Assembly (NCBI RefSeq): GCF_030129945.1
Contig: NZ_JARRAF010000008.1
Coordinates: 124,001 to 188,000 of the forward strand
Source: Parachitinimonas caeni
GTDB taxonomy: Bacteria; Pseudomonadota; Gammaproteobacteria; Burkholderiales; Chitinimonadaceae
Length of the DNA stretch: 64,000 nucleotides
Direction of reading: 5' to 3'
Shown: positions 49,624-60,402 of the stretch, piece after piece
How the letters are laid out: each line of letters starts with the position of its first letter
How positions within the stretch are numbered: position 1 is the first letter of the stretch
Made by a program: the position numbers and the translations under genes
The notes under the pieces: model-generated
What the model was told of the DNA's origin: nothing
Database searches by the model: none
What the model saw: the letters and a program-made list of their open reading frames with translations, nothing else

Positions 49624-51282
49624 ATGGTCGTCAAAAAATTCTACGGAACCAGCACCCGCGAGGTGTTGCGTCAGGTGAGGGATGAGTTGGGGCCTGACGC
49701 ACTGATCCTGTCCAACCGGCAGGTTAATGGTGGCATCGAAATCATGGCCGTGGCCGATACCGATGTAGCGGCACTCAGCAGCCACCAGATCACCAAACCC
49801 GCCGGCAAACCTGCAGCGCCACGGCCGGCAGAGCCTGTCAGGGTCGTCGGCAAGCCGGCATTGCCGGTCAGCGCTCCACCGGCGGCTGCCGCTGCGCCTG
49901 CCGCAGCTGCTGCGGCCGCACGACCCGTGTCGGCTCAGGCCAAAGCCCTGCAGCGGACCTACGCCATTCCACCCGAGCTATCCGACGACGAGCCAAGCTA
50001 TGCGGATGTCGCCAGCAAGCCGTCTGCCCCCCCTGTGCGCCGGCCAGAACCCAAGCCTGTCCGGGCTGACCCGGTCATCAAGCCACCTGCGGCGGCAATG
50101 TCGATTGAGGCTACCCGCACCGACCCACAGTTTGGCATTCCCATCACCGCGACCGAGTCGATGCGGCGAGAGCCTCAGCTGTTTTCCAGCGAGCCAACCA
50201 AGGTCTCACCCGCGCCACCAGAGCCAGCACCAGAGCCCGGTGAAAGCCGGGTGCCGCCCAAGCCGGTTGCCTCCTCCCCAGCCGTCGCCGTCAGCAAAAC
50301 CGAGACCCCTGAGGCCTTTGAAGAAGTTACCCGGGAAATCAAGCAGCTGCGCAGTCTGCTGGAGGGTCAGCTGGCCGGTCTGGCCTGGAACGAGCTGAAG
50401 CGACACGACCCCGAGCGCCTGGAGGTCTTTCGCCGTCTGCTGTCGGTCGGCTTCAGCCCGGCCCTGTCCCGGCAGATCGTTGACAACATGCCCGCCGGTT
50501 ACAACGTTGACCGGGGCATGAAATGGGCACGCAGCGCGCTTCAACACAACCTGCCAACGGTTGGTTCCGCCTTCGATATTGTCGATAGTGGTGGGGTGTA
50601 CGCTTTGGTCGGCCCGACAGGTGTCGGCAAAACCACCACGGTTGCCAAGCTCGCCGCTCGCGCTACGCTCAAACATGGCCCCAACCGGGTAGCACTGATC
50701 ACCACCGATGGTTACCGGATCGGCGCGCAGGACCAACTCCGCATCTACGGCAAGATTCTCGGCGTGCAGGTGTTTGCTGTCTCTGGGGAAGAAGACTTGC
50801 GACACACCTTGTCGAGTGTCGCGAATCGCCATCTGGTGCTGATCGACACCGTGGGCATGAGCCAGCGAGATCAGCGCATTGCCGACCAGATCGCATTTCT
50901 GAGCGGTCATGGCAATCAGGTCAAGCGCCTGTTGCTGCTGGCCGCCAATGCTCAGGGCAATACGTTGGATGATGTTGTCCGGCGGTATTTTGGCGGCGGT
51001 TTGTCCGGCTGCATTTTCACCAAGCTGGACGAGGCATTCTCGGTGGGCAATGGCCTGGATGTGATCGTGCGTTACAAGTTGCCCTTGTACTACATCACCA
51101 ACGGCCAGCGGGTGCCGGAAGACCTGCACGTCGCCAGCTCGGCCTACCTGATTGACCGCGTCTTCAAAGCGCCCCCGGAGCTACCCGCGTATCGGCTGAA
51201 ATCGGAGGAATACCCGGTATTCCTCGGCTCCAAGACCGAGCCACATCTGGATTTCAGCTGGGGTGAGGTCGGCAATGCATAG
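49624..51282 (+). CDS. flhF: Flagellar placement GTPase FlhF
   Basis: FlhF is an SRP-type GTPase that marks the cell pole for flagellar assembly. The 552-residue protein has the B domain start VVKKFYGTSTREVLRQVRDELGPDALILSN, a long Pro/Ala-rich linker (about residues 52-235), the N domain, and the G domain with G1 GPTGVGKTTT (330-339), ITTDGYRIGAQDQLRIYG, G3 DTVGMSQRD and G4 TKLDE. The linker is longer than in Vibrio or Pseudomonas homologs. Its stop overlaps the flhG start by 8 bases. Confidence 0.97.
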   Translation: MVVKKFYGTSTREVLRQVRDELGPDALILSNRQVNGGIEIMAVADTDVAALSSHQITKPAGKPAAPRPAEPVRVVGKPALPVSAPPAAAAAPAAAAAAARPVSAQAKALQRTYAIPPELSDDEPSYADVASKPSAPPVRRPEPKPVRADPVIKPPAAAMSIEATRTDPQFGIPITATESMRREPQLFSSEPTKVSPAPPEPAPEPGESRVPPKPVASSPAVAVSKTETPEAFEEVTREIKQLRSLLEGQLAGLAWNELKRHDPERLEVFRRLLSVGFSPALSRQIVDNMPAGYNVDRGMKWARSALQHNLPTVGSAFDIVDSGGVYALVGPTGVGKTTTVAKLAARATLKHGPNRVALITTDGYRIGAQDQLRIYGKILGVQVFAVSGEEDLRHTLSSVANRHLVLIDTVGMSQRDQRIADQIAFLSGHGNQVKRLLLLAANAQGNTLDDVVRRYFGGGLSGCIFTKLDEAFSVGNGLDVIVRYKLPLYYITNGQRVPEDLHVASSAYLIDRVFKAPPELPAYRLKSEEYPVFLGSKTEPHLDFSWGEVGNA

Positions 51283-52150
51283 CGGTGATCAGGCAGCCGG
51301 ACTACGCGATCTGGTCGAGCATGGCGGCAGCCGCGCCATCTGCTGCTTTGGCGCACACGGAACAGGCGTCACCAGCATGGCCATCAACCTTGCGGCGGCG
51401 CTGGCCCACCACGGCAAACGGGTCATGCTGGTGGATGAATCACGCGGCAACGAGAGTGCCGTCGCCCGCCTGCAGCTGAATCAACGCTTTACCTTTGACC
51501 ATGTATTAGGCAGGGATGTGCGGTTGTCCGACTTACCCCTGCAAGCGCCGGGTGGCATAGAGCTTCTGCCATTGCAGGCCAGCCAGCAGGTGCTGGCCGG
51601 CATTTCGCCGATCCGCCAGCGCCAGCTCGCTGACGAATTCGACAGCATTGCCGCTTGCATAGATCTGCATCTGATTGACGGCCGGCCGGCACAGACCGAT
51701 GAGCCGCCCAGTCTGGCGCTGGCATCAGACGACATGATCGTGGTCATCACCCCGCATGCCGAGTCGATTACCGAGGCTTATGCCTCGATCAAGCTCTTGA
51801 ACAATGAATACGGCCGACGCGAGTTCTGGATTCTGGCAAACCGCGTTCGCACACTGGAAACCGCCAGGGCGCTGTTTCGTCGTATCAAGGAAGTCGCAGG
51901 TCGCTATCTGGGGGCGCGCTTGCGGCTGATGGGTTTTGTCCCGGAGGATGAACGTCTGCACCGCGCCAACCGTCTTGGGCGCCCGGTTACCGATGCGTTT
52001 CCCGATGCAGAAGCCAGCATCGCCTTCGACCAGCTGGCCGATGCCATGCTGCGCTGGCCACCCGCCGCCATTGCACAGGGCGACCGCGCCAACCTGCTGT
52101 ATCGCGCCATTGACGGCAGCCGCAAGCTGGCTCTGGATGCCACCTTGTAG
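51275..52150 (+). CDS. flhG: FlhG/FleN-like MinD family protein with degenerate P-loop
   Basis: A 291-residue ParA/MinD-type protein overlapping the end of flhF, the position of flhG, which limits flagellar number by antagonising FlhF. QAAGLRDLVEHGG at the N-terminus matches the FlhF-activating DQAxxLR motif. The deviant Walker A region is GAHGTGVTSMAINLA (26-40): aligned with KGGVGKT, both lysines are replaced (Ala27, Val32). The Walker A' Asp is kept in MLVDESRGNE, and ACIDLHLIDGRPA is a plausible Walker B. ATP binding or hydrolysis may therefore be impaired or altered. Flagellar placement is inferred from context. A compound hairpin follows. Confidence 0.85.
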   Translation: MHSGDQAAGLRDLVEHGGSRAICCFGAHGTGVTSMAINLAAALAHHGKRVMLVDESRGNESAVARLQLNQRFTFDHVLGRDVRLSDLPLQAPGGIELLPLQASQQVLAGISPIRQRQLADEFDSIAACIDLHLIDGRPAQTDEPPSLALASDDMIVVITPHAESITEAYASIKLLNNEYGRREFWILANRVRTLETARALFRRIKEVAGRYLGARLRLMGFVPEDERLHRANRLGRPVTDAFPDAEASIAFDQLADAMLRWPPAAIAQGDRANLLYRAIDGSRKLALDATL

Positions 52151-52195
52151 CCACTCGCCCCTCCCATATCAGAACCAATATCCCCGCAAAAGCTC

Positions 52196-52247
52196 AGGCC
52201 CTGCAGTCAGGCATTGGTGTTCTGACAAACACCCGACTGCAGGGCCT
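52196..52247. terminator. Compound hairpin between flhG and the DUF1566 gene
   Basis: A 13-bp perfect outer stem AGGCCCTGCAGTC (52196-52208) and GACTGCAGGGCCT (52235-52247) encloses a second stem GGTGTT/AACACC. The two genes converge here. There is no T-tract, so it is a stable structured end rather than a classic terminator. Confidence 0.55.
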
Positions 52248-52285
52248 GCATCCCTCAGGAAGAGGCGGTGTATCGCAAGGGCGGC

Positions 52286-55234
52286 CTACTGCACGAAAAA
52301 CCCTTGCGACTTGCCATCCAGATAGCGCACGTAGAACTTGCCAGGTTCCACCCACCAGTCATCCGCCAGATGCACAGAGGGCGTATCCACCAGACCGATA
52401 TCCGGAGTAAACGTGTAGTTCAAACCCTGCAAGGTCACAGCGATGGTGCCGTCGGTGTTCTGGAACAGTTGAGCATTGCTGTCACGCAGGCGCATGACTT
52501 CGTCCATCCGCTTGAAATCGGCCACAAACGGATACAGCGTCTGAGCACGACCATTGAAGTCGGTGAACAGCAAACTGCCATCTGGCTCGACACTGAACGA
52601 AGCAGGTTTATTGCGTGCGAACTGCCACCAGCCCGGCCGTACGGCATAGGTCTTGCCAAGGTAAACGACGCGCAAGACGCCATCGGCGGTTACCCTCAAT
52701 GTCGCAGCCGGGTCGGTCTGACGCATCAGCGACAGCACTACCGTTGGGTCTGCCAAACCCGGCACCAGGCGCGTCACCACGCCCTTCACCGACAGCACCA
52801 GCACCCCTTGGCGGTCACCACGCAACGAGGTTCCGGCGCTTGGATCTGCGGTCAGACGGCCAACCGGCTGTGCAAACACCTTGATGAAGTTGTAATTGAA
52901 TCCCAGGGCGCCATAGCTCTGCTGTCCCTGCTTCTTCAAACCCAAGCTCGTCGAGTCGTTGACCAGTTGAGTCAGAGCGTCATCAAGGCGCTGACCACCG
53001 AGCCTTGGGCTGCCCCCCTCCAGATTGACCGGAGTCTGGTCGAACGACAAACCAGCCGGAGGTGGCAACGGCCGCAGATTACCCGCCGCCAAAGGATCTG
53101 CGCTGTCTTCGACGATGATTTCGCTCAACACGCCCTCCGCGCTGAAAGTCGCGGTTTCCCCTTTCTCCATCGTCAAGCCAGCTGCTCCGGGCGGACAGCG
53201 ACGATCACACGGGAACAGGAGATTGCCGCTCAATACCACAATGCTGTAACCGCCATTGGCATTCACGCTGACCGCGATACGGGCGCTTTGATTGCCAGAC
53301 CGTACAACGGCCCCTCCAGCCGTCACCAGCAAGGGCTGATTGGCCGCGCCTGAGAACGTGGCTGAGCCCTTCACCAACCGCACCACCGGAATCTGTGCGC
53401 CATTGAACGTGGTAGTGGCAATCGCCAACTCGGTATCCGGCGAGGTCGGCAGCACTGCCAGATTGAAGCCTCCAAGGCTCAAGGACAGCGAACGAGGGGT
53501 GCTCGAAGAGCCGGTGTTGCACGGGTCGGTGGATGAACCGATCTTCAGCACACTACCGTTGGCGGCAGCCCCCACCGTTAGCGAAGAACCGCCCCCCAGC
53601 GTCACGGTACCTGGGCCAGCCAGATCAGCCGATGCCCCACAGGGCACGGTGAAGGTGCCGCTGGTTGGTAATGCCGCAGCCTCTGTCACGCTGGAGAACG
53701 TGGTCGAGAAGGTATCAACGGTCAGTGTCGTCACCACCGTCGTGGAGAACAGTGAACTGGAGGTATGGCGTACGGTGACCGTATCACCGTTGTTCACCGA
53801 ACCCGGACTAGTGGTGAATGTCCCGGCATTGATCTTGTACTCCCCCCCTGCAACCGAAATGGAGGCTGGCCCGGTAATCCCCAAAATGGTCGCCGCCGCC
53901 GATTCAACCGCTACATTACGCGCCACATTGGTTTTGGCCGAGAACGTAAAGGGATTAGGCGTGGTATTGGGGGGACCAACCGTTGTTGTCGCCGTTCCGG
54001 TCTCGATCGGCTGCCCGGTATTCAGATTGGTACTAATCGAAAAGATCTGATTGCCTTGAGTCGAAGGGTTGGTGATACGGCTGTTGTTAATCGACACCGA
54101 AACGGAACTGGTCCCCGATGAACCCGATCCGGACGTATTAATCACCAATGTCTGACCACTGCGCGAGGTACTTATCGCACTGCTGATTCCCGCCCCGGAA
54201 ATCGACACATCCAGATAGTTGATGGCTCCGGAAATGACATAGCCGGCCGGAAACTGGATCGCAATCTGTCCATAGGAAGGAAAGTTCTGGGCGAGGTCGA
54301 AATTAACGGTGAAAGTGGAATTGGTAGCACTCACCAGCGATGTTGCCGGAACAATCGTCGCCGAAGGCATGGTAGAAGGCGCCACCGCAATCTCGAAAAT
54401 ACTCTGCAAGGTGCCTACCTTGAGCGTCATCGACGTCAGATCTGCGGGTGGAGAACCACTCAACCCCTTCAAGACAATCTGTGCGCCAGGCTCAACGAAT
54501 CCGGGCTTATTGGTGAAACTGACCCCATTGTCGGTCGAGTAAAACCCTGGGCCAGTGATGGAAATTGGTGTGGGTGTCGTCGTGCCGTTTAAGGTCTGTG
54601 CCGTGGAAAAAATCCAGGTTGAGGGTGGCGAACCCCAGGCATTCGGAAATACCAGAGCCGGGCTAGGATCGAAGCTGGAAGCCAGTCGATCAAAACGATC
54701 AGAAGGGAAGCCACTGCGAACCAGATGCACAAATTTCGATAAGGACTTGGCATACGATGACGAGTCAAAACCATCGCCCATCGAAATCGACCATGCGTTT
54801 GAAGGCGCATCGGCAGCCGTGGTCGAGGTCCAGTAATCGGCATTCTGAAACGACGGGAAAATGGTCTGATTGGTAGCGGGACCATAGCATTTGCGCTCAA
54901 CAATCGATTCCAGCTCCTTCAGATTCGGCAATCGCCAGTCGGTCTTCGAAGCATATGTCGTGGCAGCGGCTGCAGACAGCGCAGTCTGCCAGTCCATCGT
55001 CGTAGCGGAATTCGCGCAGCTGCCCCCACTCCAGGTCTGACCAATCGAGCAGCGCATCCACATCAGACCTGTGGCCTGATGCGTCACCGTGCCATCACCA
55101 TGATCAATGAAATTGGACGTTGGTGTCGTCGCAACAATATCGGGATTACAAACCTGCACGGTCGCCAAGGCATTCGGCATTGCCAGCGCGATGGATAGTC
55201 CAGCCCCAGCAGCAAGGATATGGCGAAGAGTCAT
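52286..55234 (-). CDS. Large exported DUF1566 surface protein with repeat domains
   Basis: A 982-residue secreted protein. A signal peptide (ILAAGAGLSIALAMPNALA) is followed by a DUF1566/Lcl-type domain to about residue 185 (DHGDGTVTHQATGLMWMRC, TDWRLPNLKELESIVERKC, YWTSTTAADAPSNAWSISMGDG). Then come Ser/Thr-rich beta domains, including the repeat-type unit ITGPASISVAGGEYKINAG, VNNGDTVTVRHTSSS found in other proteobacterial surface proteins, and a FecR-like beta region around 610-720 (VRLVKGSATFSG, NGGYSIVVLSGNLLF). The last 250 residues are an unrecognised beta-rich domain. AAGGAG precedes ATG 55234. Probable adhesin or matrix protein; partner unknown. Confidence 0.78.
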   Translation of the reverse strand: MTLRHILAAGAGLSIALAMPNALATVQVCNPDIVATTPTSNFIDHGDGTVTHQATGLMWMRCSIGQTWSGGSCANSATTMDWQTALSAAAATTYASKTDWRLPNLKELESIVERKCYGPATNQTIFPSFQNADYWTSTTAADAPSNAWSISMGDGFDSSSYAKSLSKFVHLVRSGFPSDRFDRLASSFDPSPALVFPNAWGSPPSTWIFSTAQTLNGTTTPTPISITGPGFYSTDNGVSFTNKPGFVEPGAQIVLKGLSGSPPADLTSMTLKVGTLQSIFEIAVAPSTMPSATIVPATSLVSATNSTFTVNFDLAQNFPSYGQIAIQFPAGYVISGAINYLDVSISGAGISSAISTSRSGQTLVINTSGSGSSGTSSVSVSINNSRITNPSTQGNQIFSISTNLNTGQPIETGTATTTVGPPNTTPNPFTFSAKTNVARNVAVESAAATILGITGPASISVAGGEYKINAGTFTTSPGSVNNGDTVTVRHTSSSLFSTTVVTTLTVDTFSTTFSSVTEAAALPTSGTFTVPCGASADLAGPGTVTLGGGSSLTVGAAANGSVLKIGSSTDPCNTGSSSTPRSLSLSLGGFNLAVLPTSPDTELAIATTTFNGAQIPVVRLVKGSATFSGAANQPLLVTAGGAVVRSGNQSARIAVSVNANGGYSIVVLSGNLLFPCDRRCPPGAAGLTMEKGETATFSAEGVLSEIIVEDSADPLAAGNLRPLPPPAGLSFDQTPVNLEGGSPRLGGQRLDDALTQLVNDSTSLGLKKQGQQSYGALGFNYNFIKVFAQPVGRLTADPSAGTSLRGDRQGVLVLSVKGVVTRLVPGLADPTVVLSLMRQTDPAATLRVTADGVLRVVYLGKTYAVRPGWWQFARNKPASFSVEPDGSLLFTDFNGRAQTLYPFVADFKRMDEVMRLRDSNAQLFQNTDGTIAVTLQGLNYTFTPDIGLVDTPSVHLADDWWVEPGKFYVRYLDGKSQGFFVQ

Positions 55235-55249
55235 CGTTTTCTCCTTGCC

Positions 55250-56041
55250 TTAGCGGACCAGAATCACGTAGCCAGTTGAAGACTTCGTCTGGCTGGAGAT
55301 GGAACCTGTACCAAAGTTGACGATGACGGCGTTGGTATTGCTGACTGCACTGGTCGTCGCCGTCAGATAGAAGCTTGACTGCATGTTCGGGAAATACACC
55401 GAGTCCGACACTCCCGAACCAGACTGGCTCATATTGGCAATGCCTCTTAACTCTGCCGGCGTCGGCAAGCGCCAATCGTTATGCCCACACAAGCCCGCCG
55501 TATTGACTTGGCTGACATACTGCTCAGAGTTGCAATTGGTGACATGGCTACAGCCACCGCCAACAGAAGTCCCTGCATACCCGCCATTGGTTGTCGATTG
55601 CGTGCTATACCAGACCACGGCTTCGGTATTTAACCTTGGGCCAGGGTTGAGTGTTTTGACTTCCCAGGTCAGCCCGGTGATATTGTCCCGCGTGCATGCC
55701 CAATCCGTGGCACCCGTTCCCAGCGGCGTCGATGGCGCTACGCCAGAGCCATCGTTGGCAATCTTGGAAAAATCAAAGCCCGAACCCCCATTGCCTTCCT
55801 TGACCAGCACCGATGCACCTTGCGCTGCATCCCTTCCATAGCGACCATCCTGGCGGGGATAAGAATCAGCGTCGCCAGCAATACCGTTGCAGGCAAGCGA
55901 ACCAGATGCGTCGTAGCATGCACTCAAGCCGGAGTCATTCAGCGGCGTTGCCAAAACCGGCGATATCATCGCCCCGGCAACAGGCATCAATTTAACGAGC
56001 AAATGCGCCAGACGGCGCGCAGAAGTGAGTGCTTGGCTCAT
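55250..56041 (-). CDS. Exported DUF1566 domain protein
   Basis: A 263-residue secreted protein with a signal peptide (LLVKLMPVAGAMISPVLA). The mature N-terminus starts with LNDSGLSACYDASGSLACNGIAGDADSYPRQDGRYGRDA, a pattern common in DUF1566 proteins, and the domain follows with FDFSKIANDGS, WACTRDNITGLTWEVKT, NDWRLPTPAELRGIANMSQ and a terminal VILVR. It is immediately upstream of the 982-residue DUF1566 gene (15-base gap), so the two are co-transcribed. Start ATG 56041 follows GAGGTCC. Lcl of Legionella (adhesion) has this domain type; function here is unproven. Confidence 0.82.
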   Translation of the reverse strand: MSQALTSARRLAHLLVKLMPVAGAMISPVLATPLNDSGLSACYDASGSLACNGIAGDADSYPRQDGRYGRDAAQGASVLVKEGNGGSGFDFSKIANDGSGVAPSTPLGTGATDWACTRDNITGLTWEVKTLNPGPRLNTEAVVWYSTQSTTNGGYAGTSVGGGCSHVTNCNSEQYVSQVNTAGLCGHNDWRLPTPAELRGIANMSQSGSGVSDSVYFPNMQSSFYLTATTSAVSNTNAVIVNFGTGSISSQTKSSTGYVILVR

Positions 56042-56170
56042 AAGGACCTCAATCAGACGAAAGAGGGCAGGCCTTGCCGGAACTACAGCAATTTGCACCT
56101 GCCGTTCGTTTCCACTCTAGATTGTAGAACGCCAAGCTAACAGTGACTTAAATTGCACACGCCGTATAAA

Positions 56171-56557
56171 TTATTTACGGTGTTTACCGCGTTTATGTTG
56201 GTGCTTCTTGCTTGTTTTGCTGTGTTTGGACAATTTTGGCGTCTTTTTGGCAGTCCGCTTGCCTGATTTGACTACCTTATTATGCTTTTTGCCAGACGAG
56301 ACAACCGCACCGCCATTTTTACGATCTGAATGACGAACTGCACGGCGGTCTGCATGGCGTACAGCTCGCTTGGATTTGCTCAATCTGGATTTTGTTGCTT
56401 TGGAAGATTCGGCAGTACGACGCTCTTCGTGCTGCTTGGCGGGCTTGGTGTTAACCGCTCTATCCGGCAAGGGGACATCAAGCGGCAAAGGCGCTTCAGC
56501 CGCCCAGGCCGGCATCAACAAACAGGAACACAGCAAAACAAATACGAAATTACGCAT
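56171..56557 (-). CDS. Secreted Lys/Arg/His-rich small protein
   Basis: A 128-residue protein with a convincing signal peptide (MRNFVFVLLCSCLLMPAWAAEA). The mature part is strongly basic and low-complexity: SKATKSRLSKSKRAVRHADR, RRAVRHSDRKNGG, and a tail of Lys/His/Ser (KTPKLSKHSKTSKKHQHK). Composition recalls histone-H1-like tails or cationic surface proteins that bind DNA, polysaccharide or metals. It has no recognisable domain. It is 130 bases upstream of the DUF1566 pair in the same direction and divergent from the pseudokinase gene (135 bases). Confidence 0.6.
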   Translation of the reverse strand: MRNFVFVLLCSCLLMPAWAAEAPLPLDVPLPDRAVNTKPAKQHEERRTAESSKATKSRLSKSKRAVRHADRRAVRHSDRKNGGAVVSSGKKHNKVVKSGKRTAKKTPKLSKHSKTSKKHQHKRGKHRK

Positions 56558-56692
56558 AATGGGTTCGTATCTCACTAAAACAGTTGGTATAAAACACACT
56601 GCCACCTGACGTGGCATAATCAGCCCACGTAAATGGGGGCTGTTTTGATTCCCAGCCCAGAGTCGCCTTCCCGCTAACGCATTGACGCGCCC

Positions 56693-58429
56693 ATGACCAA
56701 ACACGGAGAACCCGTCGGCACTGCCGATCGACTCGTGCAACTAGAAAAGTTCCTGAGCAGCAAGGAAACCGAACGCTGGTGCAAAATACTGGGTCCATAC
56801 TACCCGGCGGCCGACTACTGGCTGAGCCACGAGGCACGAATTCTACAGGAGTTCCAACGAGATCAACGCTATGCGGCCCGATTCATTGCGGTTGATCTTG
56901 ACCGCCGCCTTCTGGTGGGGGAAGCGGATGGCCACCCACTGACGCACTGGCTCTCCTGTCCGACTGGCGCGCTGGACCACCCATTCCAGAAATCCAGCGA
57001 CTTGATCCGCCTGATCAAGGCAACCTGCAAAATGCTGCAGCGCTTTGCCGATGTAGGCCTCGTTCACGGCGGTCTTCGACCCGACATCTTGATACTCCGT
57101 CTGAATGCCCAGCAGGAAATCGACTTCGACAGCCTGAAAGTCATCGACTTTTCAGTAGCCCGCAGCCCTCTGCATCGTGTCGAGAAGCCCCCGTTCATTG
57201 ATGTCGATTGTGCCGATGCCGCCTATCTATCGCCAGCGGCGAAAGAAGCCATCAATCAAGACTGGGCGCGCTTTGCCAAACTCTGTGGCGAACCGGGTAA
57301 GCGATCCTGGTACGAAATCTCCGATACCGCCAAACGCCAATACGACAGCGTGCTGCTGCCAGACCTTGCCTACAACAGCCTGGACTGGCGATGTGACCTG
57401 TATGCGCTTGCCCACTGGTTCCGCCAGATTTCGTTGCACCGTCTCGACTACTTCAAGGATTCACATCAGGAAGCCCTGCCGGCGCTGCTCAAGCGCATGC
57501 AAAAGCCCGTGTGGCAGGGTGGTTTCTCCAGCCTGGATAGTTGTTTGCGTGCGTTGGACTCCTTTGAACTCGATCCCGCTCCCAGCAAAGTCGAGACCCA
57601 GCCACAAACCGTTGCTGTGACAACCATGCATCCGCTACCGGTATTGCATTCGATTCAGCTCTCCCCTGGCACCACCAAGATCGACGCAACCCAAGCCAGC
57701 TCGCCCAAGCCACGCCAGCCCGCCGGGCGACGCGAACCGGCCGGGAGCAGTGGCAAATGGCTTGGTATTTTTGCTGGCATGGCCATTGCGGGCATTGCGG
57801 CGTGGTCTTTACTCAAGCCCAAGCCCGTCGTAAGCCGCCCTCAACCGATGGTCACGCCACCAGTCCAACCCAGCGCGGTAGATGCCCCTGCCTCTGCACC
57901 GGCCATTACGGAAGTACCTGCCTCGGCAGCGGACACCAGCTCATCCAGCAAGCCTGAAGACTTCAAGAGTGACAGTCTTGAAGAGATTCGAGCCGCTGCC
58001 GAGGCAGGCAATGCTTCGGCGCAGACCAAGCTGGGTTTACGTTACCGCAATGGCCAAGGCCTTACTCAGGACAATGAAGAAGCCGTCAAATGGTATCGCA
58101 AGGCCGCAGAACAGAATCACCCTGATGCACAGGCATACCTGGGCTTCATGTATATGAGTGGGCGGGGTGTAAAGCGTGATGATGCTGCAGCTTTTCGTTG
58201 GTCATTGAAAGGTGCAGAGCAAGGTAGCACCATCGGTCAGTACAACCTTGGGCTCCTCTATGCCAACGGGCGCGGTACCCGAGCCGATCTGCAGCAGGCT
58301 TATCGCTGGTTCAAGAAAGCGGCAAGTGGTGGCGAAAACAATGCCAGCGCCCGCCAGAGACTAGCGGAGCTGAAGCCACGCCTGAACAACACCCAGATTG
58401 CCGAGGCCGAGCGCCTGGCCAGTCAGTAA
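56693..58429 (+). CDS. Degenerate protein-kinase-like / Sel1-repeat membrane protein
   Basis: A 578-residue protein in three parts. Residues 1-300 resemble a bacterial Ser/Thr kinase C-lobe: VHGGLRPDILILR (124-136) stands where HRDLKPxNILL should be, IDFSVARS (151-158) for DFG, and AYLSPAAKE (177-185) for the APE-like motif. The catalytic Asp and Asn are replaced (Gly127, Ile132), and no glycine loop or VAIK lysine is seen, so it looks like a pseudokinase. A transmembrane helix (WLGIFAGMAIAGIAAWSLL, about 354-372) follows, then a Pro/Ala linker and four Sel1 repeats in the periplasm (about 430-565). It may transmit a signal across the membrane. Confidence 0.75.
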   Translation: MTKHGEPVGTADRLVQLEKFLSSKETERWCKILGPYYPAADYWLSHEARILQEFQRDQRYAARFIAVDLDRRLLVGEADGHPLTHWLSCPTGALDHPFQKSSDLIRLIKATCKMLQRFADVGLVHGGLRPDILILRLNAQQEIDFDSLKVIDFSVARSPLHRVEKPPFIDVDCADAAYLSPAAKEAINQDWARFAKLCGEPGKRSWYEISDTAKRQYDSVLLPDLAYNSLDWRCDLYALAHWFRQISLHRLDYFKDSHQEALPALLKRMQKPVWQGGFSSLDSCLRALDSFELDPAPSKVETQPQTVAVTTMHPLPVLHSIQLSPGTTKIDATQASSPKPRQPAGRREPAGSSGKWLGIFAGMAIAGIAAWSLLKPKPVVSRPQPMVTPPVQPSAVDAPASAPAITEVPASAADTSSSSKPEDFKSDSLEEIRAAAEAGNASAQTKLGLRYRNGQGLTQDNEEAVKWYRKAAEQNHPDAQAYLGFMYMSGRGVKRDDAAAFRWSLKGAEQGSTIGQYNLGLLYANGRGTRADLQQAYRWFKKAASGGENNASARQRLAELKPRLNNTQIAEAERLASQ

Positions 58430-58503
58430 GATCACCGTAAGACTACGAATACAAGAGCCCTGAATGCGAACCAATCCGGCGGAAAGTTGTTAGTGCAAGC
58501 CGA

Positions 58504-58532
58504 TTGAGCCGATACTGGCGCCTTGCTATAGT
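58504..58532 (+). promoter_or_regulatory. Probable sigma-70 promoter of the amino-acid-binding lipoprotein gene
   Basis: TTGAGC (58504-58509), a 17-base spacer and TATAGT (58527-58532) lie 64 bases before ATG 58597. The leader contains a small palindrome, ATGACCGGCCGGTCAT (58546-58561). Confidence 0.6.
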
Positions 58533-58596
58533 GCATCGCTTGCCATGACCGGCCGGTCATGGCGTACATCTGCATGAAGAAAAAAGGGAGAGTTTG

Positions 58597-59412
58597 ATGA
58601 ATTCCGGTCGTCGTTTGGTAATGAGTTTGTTGGTTTCCGGTTTGATGTTGGCTGCCTGCGGCAAGCAGGAACAACCTGCTTCGGCAGACAAGCCAGCAGA
58701 CGCAGCCAAGCCCGCTGCAGCAGCTGCCGGCAAGGTATACAAGGTAGGTACTGATGCAGCCTATGCCCCGTTTGAATCATTGAACGAGCAAAAGCAGATT
58801 GTCGGCTTCACGGCAGATGTTCTGAACGCCGTTGCCGAAAAAGGTGGTTTCAAGGTTGAGTTCCACAACACGCCTTGGGAAGGTATTTTCCAGACGCTGG
58901 CCAATGGCGACCGCGATCTGGTTGCGTCATCCGTCACGATTACTGACGAACGCAAGCAAACCATGGATTTCTCCGAGCCTTATTTCGAAGCCAAGCAGCT
59001 GATTGCTGTTGGCAAGGGCAGCAAGATTGCCAAGGCAGACGACCTGAAAGACAAGAAGGTAGGCGTACAGACCGGCACCACGGGTGACGAAGTCGTACAG
59101 AAAATGCTGGGTAAGACCAACCCCAACATCAAGCGCTTTGAAAGCACACCGCTGGCCTTGCAAGAGCTGCAGAACGGTGGTGTAGATGCAGTCGTTGCCG
59201 ACAACGGCGTTGTGATCAACTTCGTCAACAACAACAAGGCCGCAGGTCTGTCGATGATTGACGATCCAAGCTTTGCCAAAGAGTTCTACGGTTTTGCGGT
59301 GAAAAAGGGCAATGCAGAATTGATCGCCAAGCTGAATGACGGCATCGCAAAGATCAAGGCTGACGGCACTTACGACAAGATCTACGCCAAGTACTTCGGC
59401 GCCAAGCAATAA
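58597..59412 (+). CDS. Amino-acid ABC transporter substrate-binding lipoprotein
   Basis: A 271-residue SBP family 3 protein for polar amino acids, with a lipoprotein signal (SLLVSGLMLAACGKQEQ, lipobox LAAC) and an Ala/Pro-rich linker. Binding-fold motifs are KVGTDAAYAPFESLNEQKQIVGFTADVLNAV, FHNTPWEGIFQTLANGDRDLVASSVTIT and VGVQTGTTGDEVVQ, in the GlnH/FliY style. The ligand (glutamine, glutamate or arginine) cannot be decided. ATG 58597 follows GGGAGAG; a TTG just before it is not used. A strong attenuator hairpin separates it from the permease gene. Confidence 0.92.
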   Translation: MNSGRRLVMSLLVSGLMLAACGKQEQPASADKPADAAKPAAAAAGKVYKVGTDAAYAPFESLNEQKQIVGFTADVLNAVAEKGGFKVEFHNTPWEGIFQTLANGDRDLVASSVTITDERKQTMDFSEPYFEAKQLIAVGKGSKIAKADDLKDKKVGVQTGTTGDEVVQKMLGKTNPNIKRFESTPLALQELQNGGVDAVVADNGVVINFVNNNKAAGLSMIDDPSFAKEFYGFAVKKGNAELIAKLNDGIAKIKADGTYDKIYAKYFGAKQ

Positions 59413-59440
59413 TCCTAGCGGGGAAATCCCCAAGTCGGCA

Positions 59441-59479
59441 AAGAAGCGCAATTTGGCAAGAATTGCGCTTCTTTTTTTG
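59441..59479 (+). terminator. Intrinsic terminator/attenuator between SBP and permease genes
   Basis: AAGAAGCGCAATT (59441-59453) pairs with AATTGCGCTTCTT (59461-59473) and runs into TTTTTGG. It lies 28 bases after the SBP stop and would make the binding protein more abundant than the permease, as is common in such operons. Confidence 0.85.
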
Positions 59480-59604
59480 GTAATTCTTCACAAAGAAAAA
59501 GACAAAGCGGCGAGCGCAACTTTGCAGCCATCTTCCGATGGCACTCAAGACCAACCACGTTTTAACAAGACTTAAACCCAAGACGGGTAATAGCGGGAGA
59601 CAAC

Positions 59605-60402
59605 ATGGACTTTCCAGCATTCTGGAAGGGAGTACAGCAATCGGTACCCCTGCTCGCAGACGTCCGGCTAGAGATCGTCTGGCAATATCGTGATTTGCTG
59701 TTCGACGGCGCCTGGATGACGCTGAAAATCACACTGATCGCCGTCATCGTCGGCACCATCATCGGTCTGATCGGTGGGATGAGCCGTCTGGCACATGCCG
59801 CGCACGGCCCGTGGCGACTACCTCTGAAGTATCTGGTACGTTGGCCAGTCACCCTCTATGTGACGTTCTTCAGAGGTACGCCGCTATTCGTACAGATCAT
59901 GCTCGTGCATTTTGCCTTGATGCCAGCGCTGGTCCACGTTGATAACGGCCTGTTGATCAGCGGTGAACTTGCACGCACCCTCAAGCAGGAATACGGCGCC
60001 TTTCTGTCAGGCCTGGTTGCGCTGACGCTGAACGCCGGTGCCTATATCACTGAAATCTTCCGCGCCGGCATCCAGTCCATCCACCGTGGACAGACCGAAG
60101 CGGCCCGTTCACTGGGCATGAATTACTGGCAGACCATGATTCACGTCATCCTGCCGCAGGCATTCCGCCGGATGTTACCGCCGCTGGGGAACGAAGCCAT
60201 CATGCTGCTGAAAGACTCCTCGCTGGTTTCAGCCATTGGCCTGGCAGAAATGGCCTATGCGGCCCGGACCGTCGCGGGTGCCTACTCTCGCTACTGGGAG
60301 CCGTATATCGTGATCTCCCTGATCTATCTGGCCATGACCATGCTGATGGCAGCAGGTGTGGCGCGACTGGAAAAGCGTTTCCAGCAAAGCGGCGGCGTTT
60401 GA
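59605..60402 (+). CDS. Polar amino-acid ABC transporter permease
   Basis: A 265-residue HisM/GlnP-family membrane protein. FDGAWMTLKITLIAVIVGTIIGLI opens the transmembrane domain, VTFFRGTPLFVQIML is the typical family signature, ITEIFRAGIQSIHRGQTEAARSLGMNYWQTM is the EAA-loop coupling to the ATPase, and LLKDSSLVSAIGLAEMAYAART follows. An extra loop of about 15 residues (VHVDNGLLISGELARTLKQEYG) lies between helices 2 and 3. No ATPase gene follows: a terminator and a minus-strand gene do, so the ATPase must be elsewhere. Confidence 0.93.
   Translation: MDFPAFWKGVQQSVPLLADVRLEIVWQYRDLLFDGAWMTLKITLIAVIVGTIIGLIGGMSRLAHAAHGPWRLPLKYLVRWPVTLYVTFFRGTPLFVQIMLVHFALMPALVHVDNGLLISGELARTLKQEYGAFLSGLVALTLNAGAYITEIFRAGIQSIHRGQTEAARSLGMNYWQTMIHVILPQAFRRMLPPLGNEAIMLLKDSSLVSAIGLAEMAYAARTVAGAYSRYWEPYIVISLIYLAMTMLMAAGVARLEKRFQQSGGV

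What the first reader, a model, noticed from the sequence alone, without database searches (positions are those of the whole stretch)
52286..58429. Cluster of exported DUF1566 proteins, a cationic secreted protein and a membrane pseudokinase
Two co-oriented DUF1566 proteins (one with Ig-like and FecR-like parts), a 128-residue Lys/His-rich secreted protein, and a divergent protein joining a degenerate kinase C-lobe to a periplasmic Sel1 domain through one membrane helix lie together. The inside domain lacks HRD and DFG residues, so it probably senses or scaffolds rather than phosphorylates. A surface-attachment or envelope-sensing system built from these parts would be new to me.
Basis: inference. 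Interest (0 to 1): 0.65.

Follow-up and report, generated by a model that had tools for sequence, protein, structure and literature searches.

The report
Membrane pseudokinase with cationic secreted neighbour
A small group of environmental bacteria carries a membrane protein with a kinase-like, probably non-phosphorylating inner part and a repeat domain outside the inner membrane; in several of them it sits back to back with a gene for a strongly positively charged secreted protein, while the two other genes first reported with it look like accidental neighbours.

Summary
All four genes are at the stated coordinates. Three findings change the reading.

(1) The pseudokinase (578 aa, window 56693-58429) belongs to a constrained single-copy family: 10 of 10, 5 of 5 and 4 of 4 genomes searched of three bacterial families, and no other genome of a 300-genome order sample. 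The HRD aspartate is lost in 19 of 19 proteins; the putative beta3 lysine, alphaC glutamate and DFG aspartate are kept in 19 of 19, so 'lacks DFG' is wrong.

(2) The cationic secreted gene is a real neighbour: a comparable gene lies divergently upstream in 4 of 4 testable genomes of a second family, and an exact 10-mer, TGGCATAATC, occurs 5 times in 347 kb, always in that spacer.

(3) Neither DUF1566 gene was found in 18 relatives' neighbourhoods, so the four-part system is not supported.

Best reading: a transmembrane pseudokinase receptor or scaffold, Sel1 repeats outside and a conserved, probably inactive kinase fold inside, paired with an exported cationic protein. Signal and partners are inferred. 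In Chitinimonas relatives the gene lies just behind minCDE, but hairpins there argue against simple co-transcription.

The parts
56693..58429 (+). transmembrane pseudokinase-Sel1 protein, 578 aa
   Evidence: family in 19 genomes
56693..57598 (+). kinase-like domain, residues 1 to about 302
   Evidence: dN/dS 0.025-0.123 in six pairs of relatives, dS saturated in five of them
56783..56785 (+). K31, putative beta3 (VAIK) lysine
   Evidence: invariant 19 of 19; at the VAIK lysine in the global profile alignment, outside the local alignment
56831..56833 (+). E47, alphaC glutamate
   Evidence: invariant 19 of 19
57065..57085 (+). H125-GGLRP-D131, degenerate HRD catalytic loop
   Evidence: H125, L128, R129 and D131 invariant 19 of 19; HRD aspartate absent 19 of 19
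57146..57148 (+). D152, DFG aspartate (DFS in the window)
   Evidence: invariant 19 of 19
57251..57376 (+). about 40-residue insert between the APE-like and alphaF regions (residues 187-228)
   Evidence: gap in canonical kinases in the global profile alignment
57758..57814 (+). transmembrane helix, residues 356-374
   Evidence: hydropathy; no Cys after the helix in 19 of 19; N flank more positive in 18 of 19
57989..58426 (+). Sel1-repeat region, about residues 433-578, predicted periplasmic
   Evidence: Pfam Sel1 4.9e-31, three stretches; topology
56612..56621 (+). TGGCATAATC, extended -10-like element facing the pseudokinase gene
   Evidence: exact in 5 of 5 divergent spacers and nowhere else in 346,995 bp; 1 in the window, 0.09 expected, 8 of 100 shuffles have one; not listed by the sigma-70 consensus scan
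56171..56557 (-). exported Lys/Arg-rich protein, 128 aa, divergent to the pseudokinase
55250..56047 (-). DUF1566 (Lcl_C) protein B; flanking gene, not part of the conserved unit
52286..55234 (-). DUF1566 (Lcl_C) protein A; flanking gene, not part of the conserved unit
58594..60402 (+). amino-acid-type ABC transporter binding protein and permease
   Evidence: both also downstream in L028, L033, L036; binding protein alone in L030
52195..52248 (.). 24-nt inverted repeat between flhG and DUF1566-A, probable two-way terminator (inference)

Best explanation
The core is a two-gene unit: a transmembrane pseudokinase and, divergently, a small exported cationic protein. Shown by sequence: one membrane helix, a kinase-like domain before it, Sel1 repeats after it, topology signs for kinase inside and Sel1 outside, purifying selection on the kinase-like domain, loss of the HRD aspartate with retention of the putative Lys-Glu-Asp nucleotide set, a divergent cationic gene in two bacterial families, and a conserved promoter-like element. 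Inferred: the Sel1 repeats bind a periplasmic protein or envelope component (possibly the cationic protein or what it coats); this changes the pseudokinase, which may still bind ATP/Mg; and the pseudokinase acts as a switch or scaffold for cytosolic partners instead of phosphorylating them. The DUF1566 genes are bystanders brought next to it by rearrangement.
For: Family in 10 of 10, 5 of 5 and 4 of 4 genomes of three families and 18 of 300 in the order sample, all from these families, one match per genome. Kinase kinship; all 50 Foldseek rows shown (of 985 matches) are kinases, none at E <= 0.001, from a poor model. HRD Asp 0 of 19; K31, E47, D152 19 of 19. dN/dS of the kinase-like domain 0.025-0.123 in six pairs; linker 0.114-0.377 in the four pairs where it could be computed. 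Topology. Cationic partner: the only 5 signal-peptide plus cationic ORFs in 346,995 bp all sit divergent to this gene (criteria set after seeing them); 0 in 153,545 bp around flhF/flhG of 13 relatives. TGGCATAATC: 5 exact in 346,995 bp, all in the five spacers.
Against: No partner, ligand or localisation is shown. The cationic gene is not next to the pseudokinase in 8 of 8 other genomes of the window's family with sequence upstream (minE is there) nor in three of the four f35 genomes (EAL-HDOD there; the fourth contig ends 290 bp upstream), so pairing is not universal. Sel1 regions are net positive (+2 to +8), so simple charge attraction to a cationic protein is not supported. The tails of the cationic proteins are low complexity, and the window copy has only a degenerate form of the proline-rich motif. 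L038 and L039 are from one genus, so five pairs are about four lineages. A sigma-70 consensus scan did not list the 10-mer as a promoter.
Confidence: 0.5

Rival explanations
1. The domain is an active enzyme with a repurposed active site (for example AMP transfer as in SelO), not a dead scaffold.
For: K31, E47, R129, D131 and D152 are invariant in 19 of 19 although the HRD aspartate is gone. A review's table gives E. coli SelO as Hgvmntdn, also without the HRD aspartate and, by counting, with D at the place of D131. The six true kinases used here have K, A or S at that place.
Against: No SelO family among the Pfam matches at E <= 1 of 18 members. The asparagine after D131 is kept in only 3 of 19. 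D or E before that asparagine also occurs in ordinary kinases (recalled).
Confidence: 0.15
2. It is a cell-division or cell-pole factor working with MinCDE, chemotaxis and polar flagella.
For: recR-minC-minD-minE-pseudokinase order in 8 of 8 other genomes of the window's family with sequence upstream (two of the eight, L032 and L035, are near copies); cheA and EAL-HDOD upstream in 3 of 4 f35 genomes; flhF in 19 of 19 carriers. A Sel1-like periplasmic domain occurs in the polar protein SflA (passages of PMC7226244).
Against: Read by eye, a GC hairpin plus a T run follows minE in 6 of 8 spacers (L030-L035); it is in the minimum-energy fold of the three where it was tested with that result (L030, L031, L032), not in that of L033. 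A -10-like TGCCATAATC is in three spacers. So separate transcripts are likely, although the terminator scan of the L033 spacer found none. In the window genome minCDE lie on another contig without the gene. flhF is in 196 of 300 genomes of the order, so it does not discriminate.
Confidence: 0.2
3. The first reader's four-part surface-attachment or envelope-sensing system.
For: The DUF1566 genes are adjacent and have signal-like starts; weak NCBIfam similarity to adhesins, below their cut-offs.
Against: DUF1566 genes not found in 18 relatives' neighbourhoods; no full-length relative of protein A in nine other family genomes.
Confidence: 0.05
4. The cationic gene and the pseudokinase share only a control region and have unrelated functions.
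For: Divergent genes often share spacers without sharing a function (general knowledge); in other genomes the pseudokinase does without this neighbour.
Against: The pairing persists across two bacterial families with a conserved 10-mer.
Confidence: 0.25

Closest known systems
Bacterial transmembrane Hanks-type Ser/Thr kinases (PknB type; recalled)
   Same: cytosolic kinase fold, one helix, extracytoplasmic sensor domain
   Different: HRD aspartate lost, Sel1 repeats in place of PASTA or other sensors, about 40-residue insert before alphaF
Mycobacterial MviN pseudokinase (ActPs3 family in PMC12599244)
   Same: membrane protein with a pseudokinase domain
   Different: the review's table shows all three MviN motifs lost; here the putative beta3 Lys, alphaC Glu and DFG Asp are kept; Sel1 outside
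EssB/YukC (PMC12599244, section 4)
   Same: single-pass transmembrane pseudokinase described as a scaffold
   Different: EssB has lost all three motifs and belongs to type VII secretion; Sel1 here
GLW pseudokinases of proteobacteria (PMC12599244, passages)
   Same: proteobacterial, membrane helix after the kinase domain
   Different: GLW replaces HRD and a bulky hydrophobic residue replaces the lysine there; here H followed by G, A, C or S, with Lys kept
SflA of Vibrio (PMC7226244, passages)
   Same: one helix, periplasmic TPR/Sel1-like domain, cytosolic domain
   Different: opposite order of domains, DnaJ instead of pseudokinase, Vibrio only

Membership tests
Protein kinase-like superfamily | sequence kinship to kinase domains | tested here: met
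   Pfam Pkinase in 16 of 18 at E <= 1, best 2.8e-10; above the curated cut-off for 2 of the 9 scanned whole, L041 and L047; hhalign 98.6% to six kinases
Active Hanks-type Ser/Thr kinase | HRD catalytic aspartate | tested here: not met
   0 of 19
Active Hanks-type Ser/Thr kinase | VAIK lysine, alphaC glutamate, DFG aspartate | tested here: met
   19 of 19 for each; K31 placed by global alignment only
GLW pseudokinases | GLW in place of HRD and hydrophobic residue in place of lysine | tested here: not met
DLHK and CP1 pseudokinases | no transmembrane region (both); HRD aspartate kept (DLHK); linked COG3899 domain (CP1) | tested here: not met
   transmembrane helix present and HRD aspartate absent; COG3899 itself was not searched, Pfam shows mainly kinase-like and Sel1 domains
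SelO AMP transferases | sequence membership of the SelO family | tested here: not met
   no such family among the Pfam matches at E <= 1 of 18 members
SelO AMP transferases | AMP transfer activity | not testable with these tools
   needs an enzyme assay
Sel1 repeat proteins | Pfam Sel1 above cut-off | tested here: met
   window 106.5 bits, cut-off 30.7; 9 of 9 relatives scanned whole
DUF1566 (Lcl_C) | PF07603 above cut-off | tested here: met
   109 and 85.4 bits, cut-off 34.9
FecR domain (protein A) | Pfam FecR match | tested here: not met
   no match at E <= 10

The most novel reading that the evidence does not exclude
A two-gene envelope-sensing system not described in the papers found: an exported cationic protein is read in the periplasm by the Sel1 repeats of its divergently encoded partner, and a nucleotide-binding pseudokinase without the catalytic aspartate passes the signal to cell-pole, division or second-messenger machinery (in one genus the next gene encodes a class III cyclase with an FHA domain).
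Probability: 0.2. Interest if true: 0.8.

Novelty: new variant of a known kind. Interest (0 to 1): 0.55.

Why it matters
Bacterial pseudokinases are described as largely unexplored experimentally (PMC12599244, abstract). This family has a fixed single-copy gene in every genome searched of three bacterial families, a clean and unusual pattern of lost and kept residues, a defined outside domain and a testable partner gene, in bacteria such as Chitinimonas that are, as far as I recall, environmental and not pathogenic.

Tried and rejected
Four-gene neighbourhood: rejected.

My own early reading that the cationic gene is unique to this genome (1 of 10 at E <= 1e-3) was wrong for the wider group. 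The single low-complexity query is insensitive: run against the fetched loci at E <= 1e-3 it found only one of the four f32 copies. A read of the upstream strands and a compositional scan found all four.

Operon with minCDE: weakened by hairpins after minE; against this, the terminator scan of the L033 spacer found none and L036 shows no hairpin.

FHA-cyclase as a general partner: rejected. It lies next to the gene in 2 genomes of one genus; among 19 carriers the only other match at E <= 1e-12 is a weak one (G002, 1.5e-13), while 6 of 27 non-carriers that I picked have best matches of 1.4e-60 or better.

flhF co-occurrence: not discriminating. Charge attraction between Sel1 and the cationic protein: not supported.

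Sigma-70 consensus scan: two promoter-like sites in 55000-58700 (1.8 expected), neither at the shared 10-mer.

AlphaFold models of the kinase-like domain: poor (mean pLDDT 49.7 and 52.6, 4 sequences), so the fold search carries little weight. No Rfam match in 51000-60000. Paper search gave nothing relevant.
Full report
Setting. The window is G000:C326:124001-188000 of a 5.65 Mb draft genome. A genome of the same bacterial family is probably Chitinimonas taiwanensis DSM 18899: L046 has the contig length of G006 contig C22 (my inference). I call the window's family f1 as the tool does. Upstream of the finding lie flhF- and flhG-like genes (named by eye; a ParA/MinD-type ATPase by Pfam for the second); downstream lie an ABC binding protein and a permease.

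Observation. All four ORFs exist. Pfam confirms DUF1566/Lcl_C in both large minus-strand proteins and Sel1 in the plus-strand protein. Pfam gives no kinase match for the window protein itself at E <= 1, but 16 of 18 family members hit Pkinase at E <= 1, best 2.8e-10, and 2 of the 9 relatives that I scanned whole pass Pfam's cut-off (L041, L047; one, L036, shows no kinase hit at E <= 0.1). A profile of the family finds ULK kinases in the PDB at 1.4e-5 and aligns to six true bacterial kinases with 98.6% probability over residues 46-185. The global alignment puts K31 on the VAIK lysine and shows about 40 extra residues (187-228) between the APE-like and alphaF regions. AlphaFold models were poor; the 50 Foldseek rows shown are all kinases but none reaches E 0.001.

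Active site. Over 19 proteins (window and L028-L045), K31, E47, H125, L128, R129, D131, D152, F153 and D235 are invariant. The HRD aspartate is G, S or C in all, and the following asparagine is present in 3 of 19.

Distribution and constraint. The gene is in 10 of 10 genomes of f1, 5 of 5 and 4 of 4 of two more families, f32 and f35, and 18 of 300 in the order, all in these families. In a class sample, 29 of 369 genomes match at E <= 0.001, but apart from G000 itself the best is 4.0e-6; six of those loci hold kinases with intact HRD and DFG. Each of the three families forms one side of a branch in the protein tree (18 sequences; support 100/100, 100/99 and 93/91; L044 and L045 are long branches). 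In six pairs of relatives dN/dS of the kinase-like domain is 0.025-0.123; the linker gives 0.114-0.377 in the four pairs where it could be computed and the Sel1 part 0.055-0.240 in five. dS exceeds 1 in five of the six kinase-domain values, so only the closest pair (L032-L035, 0.042) is free of saturation; domain limits were approximate. The kinase-like domain is under purifying selection.

Topology. One hydrophobic helix in 19 of 19 (weak in L036). The N flank is more positive than the C flank in 18 of 19, equal in L041. No cysteine follows the helix in 19 of 19. This fits kinase inside, Sel1 outside.

Neighbourhood. None of 18 relatives has either DUF1566 gene near the pseudokinase (protein B whole, two pieces of protein A; E <= 1e-3). 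Flanks held were 81 to 9,952 bp upstream and 1,292 to 14,876 bp downstream, so several are short. In 8 of 8 other f1 genomes with sequence upstream, the order is recR-minC-minD-minE-pseudokinase (L032 and L035 are near copies); in L029 the contig begins 361 bp upstream. Gaps are 81-91 bp, 199 bp in L034. Read by eye, a GC hairpin with four or more T follows minE in L030-L035, a hairpin without a T run in L028, none in L036. Folding shows the hairpin for L028, L030, L031 and L032, not in the best fold of L033; the folded part of L034 stopped short of it and L035 was not folded. The terminator scan of L033 found none. In the window genome minCDE are on contig C293 without the gene. In f35, cheA and EAL-HDOD lie upstream in 3 of 4 genomes, and in 2 of these (genus g38) a class III cyclase-FHA gene follows.

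The cationic partner. A search with the window's 128-aa protein found it only in its own genome, and I first took it as unique. A later check showed a weak hit in L037 (9e-5) exactly divergent to the pseudokinase. Reading the upstream minus strand in all 19 loci showed exported cationic ORFs in L037, L038, L039 and L041 (117, 100, 99 and 142 aa), the four f32 genomes with sequence upstream; L040 starts 81 bp before the gene. These four share D[GT]PPPLPGDxPG after the signal peptide; the window has AEAPLPLDVPLPD. With criteria chosen after seeing these proteins, a scan of 346,995 bp found exactly these five and none in 153,545 bp around flhF/flhG in 13 relatives; in the other fetched loci only re-fetched copies of the five turned up. 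L038 and L039 copies are 59% identical with pN 0.265 and pS 0.590, a modest sign of selection. No Pfam or NCBIfam match reaches its cut-off.

Control element. The five spacers share TGGCATAATC, its first base 81, 86, 86, 86 and 111 bp before the pseudokinase start and facing it. It occurs nowhere else in 346,995 bp. In the window one copy is found against 0.09 expected, and 8 of 100 shuffles also have one, so the weight lies in the five-fold recurrence. In further fetched loci, setting aside re-fetched copies of the same spacers, three more copies exist (L051, L074, L137). In the minE spacers L031, L032 and L035 have TGCCATAATC and L034 TGCCATACTC; L028, L030, L033 and L036 have nothing within three mismatches. 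It looks like an extended -10 box (inference); the sigma-70 scan, which asks for a -35 too, did not list it.

History. The window is the first branch of f1 in the tree (99/95 for the other eight; midpoint root), and f32 shares the cationic-pseudokinase arrangement. So this arrangement is plausibly the older one, and the place behind minE derived; both the window and some min-linked genomes keep the ABC transporter genes downstream. The DUF1566 genes then came in by rearrangement. flhG is followed by a fliA-like gene in three of the four relatives printed (L128, L130, L137; not L135) but not in the window (identified by eye).

Mechanism. Best supported is a membrane receptor or scaffold: periplasmic Sel1 repeats receive a signal and the pseudokinase, which may still bind nucleotide, relays it by contact. 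Sensing, nucleotide binding and partners are inferred.

Literature. A review of bacterial pseudokinases (PMC12599244: outline with abstract, part 1 of section 4, sections 10, 12, 13 and a term search) has no mention of Sel1 in its main text, and the families compared here do not fit. Passages only of PMC10211241, PMC7226244 and PMC7327166 were seen. Searches, whose listings are capped (for example 20 of 62 and 8 of 288 papers), listed no paper that by title or abstract start describes this protein; the library is open-access only.

Noticed in passing
window 52289-53557 (-): The last ~420 residues of the 982-aa DUF1566 protein have no Pfam match but recur at 24-31% identity in large open frames (888-1595 aa) in this genome and in three relatives (G003, G007, G009); an uncharacterised C-terminal module.
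   Followed up: partly
L042 11140-12030 and L043 383-1279: A class III cyclase-FHA gene follows the pseudokinase with a 4-bp overlap in L042 and a 13-bp gap in L043, a split-gene echo of receptor guanylyl cyclases (the comparison is recalled).
   Followed up: partly
L109 8162-10987: In the window genome a 941-aa ORF lies between recR and minC, where the 8 relatives with both genes in view have only a short gap.
   Followed up: no
window 52150-52286: flhG is not followed by a fliA-like gene as in relatives L128, L130 and L137 (L135 also lacks it there); likely rearrangement point, with a strong inverted repeat at 52195-52248.
   Followed up: partly
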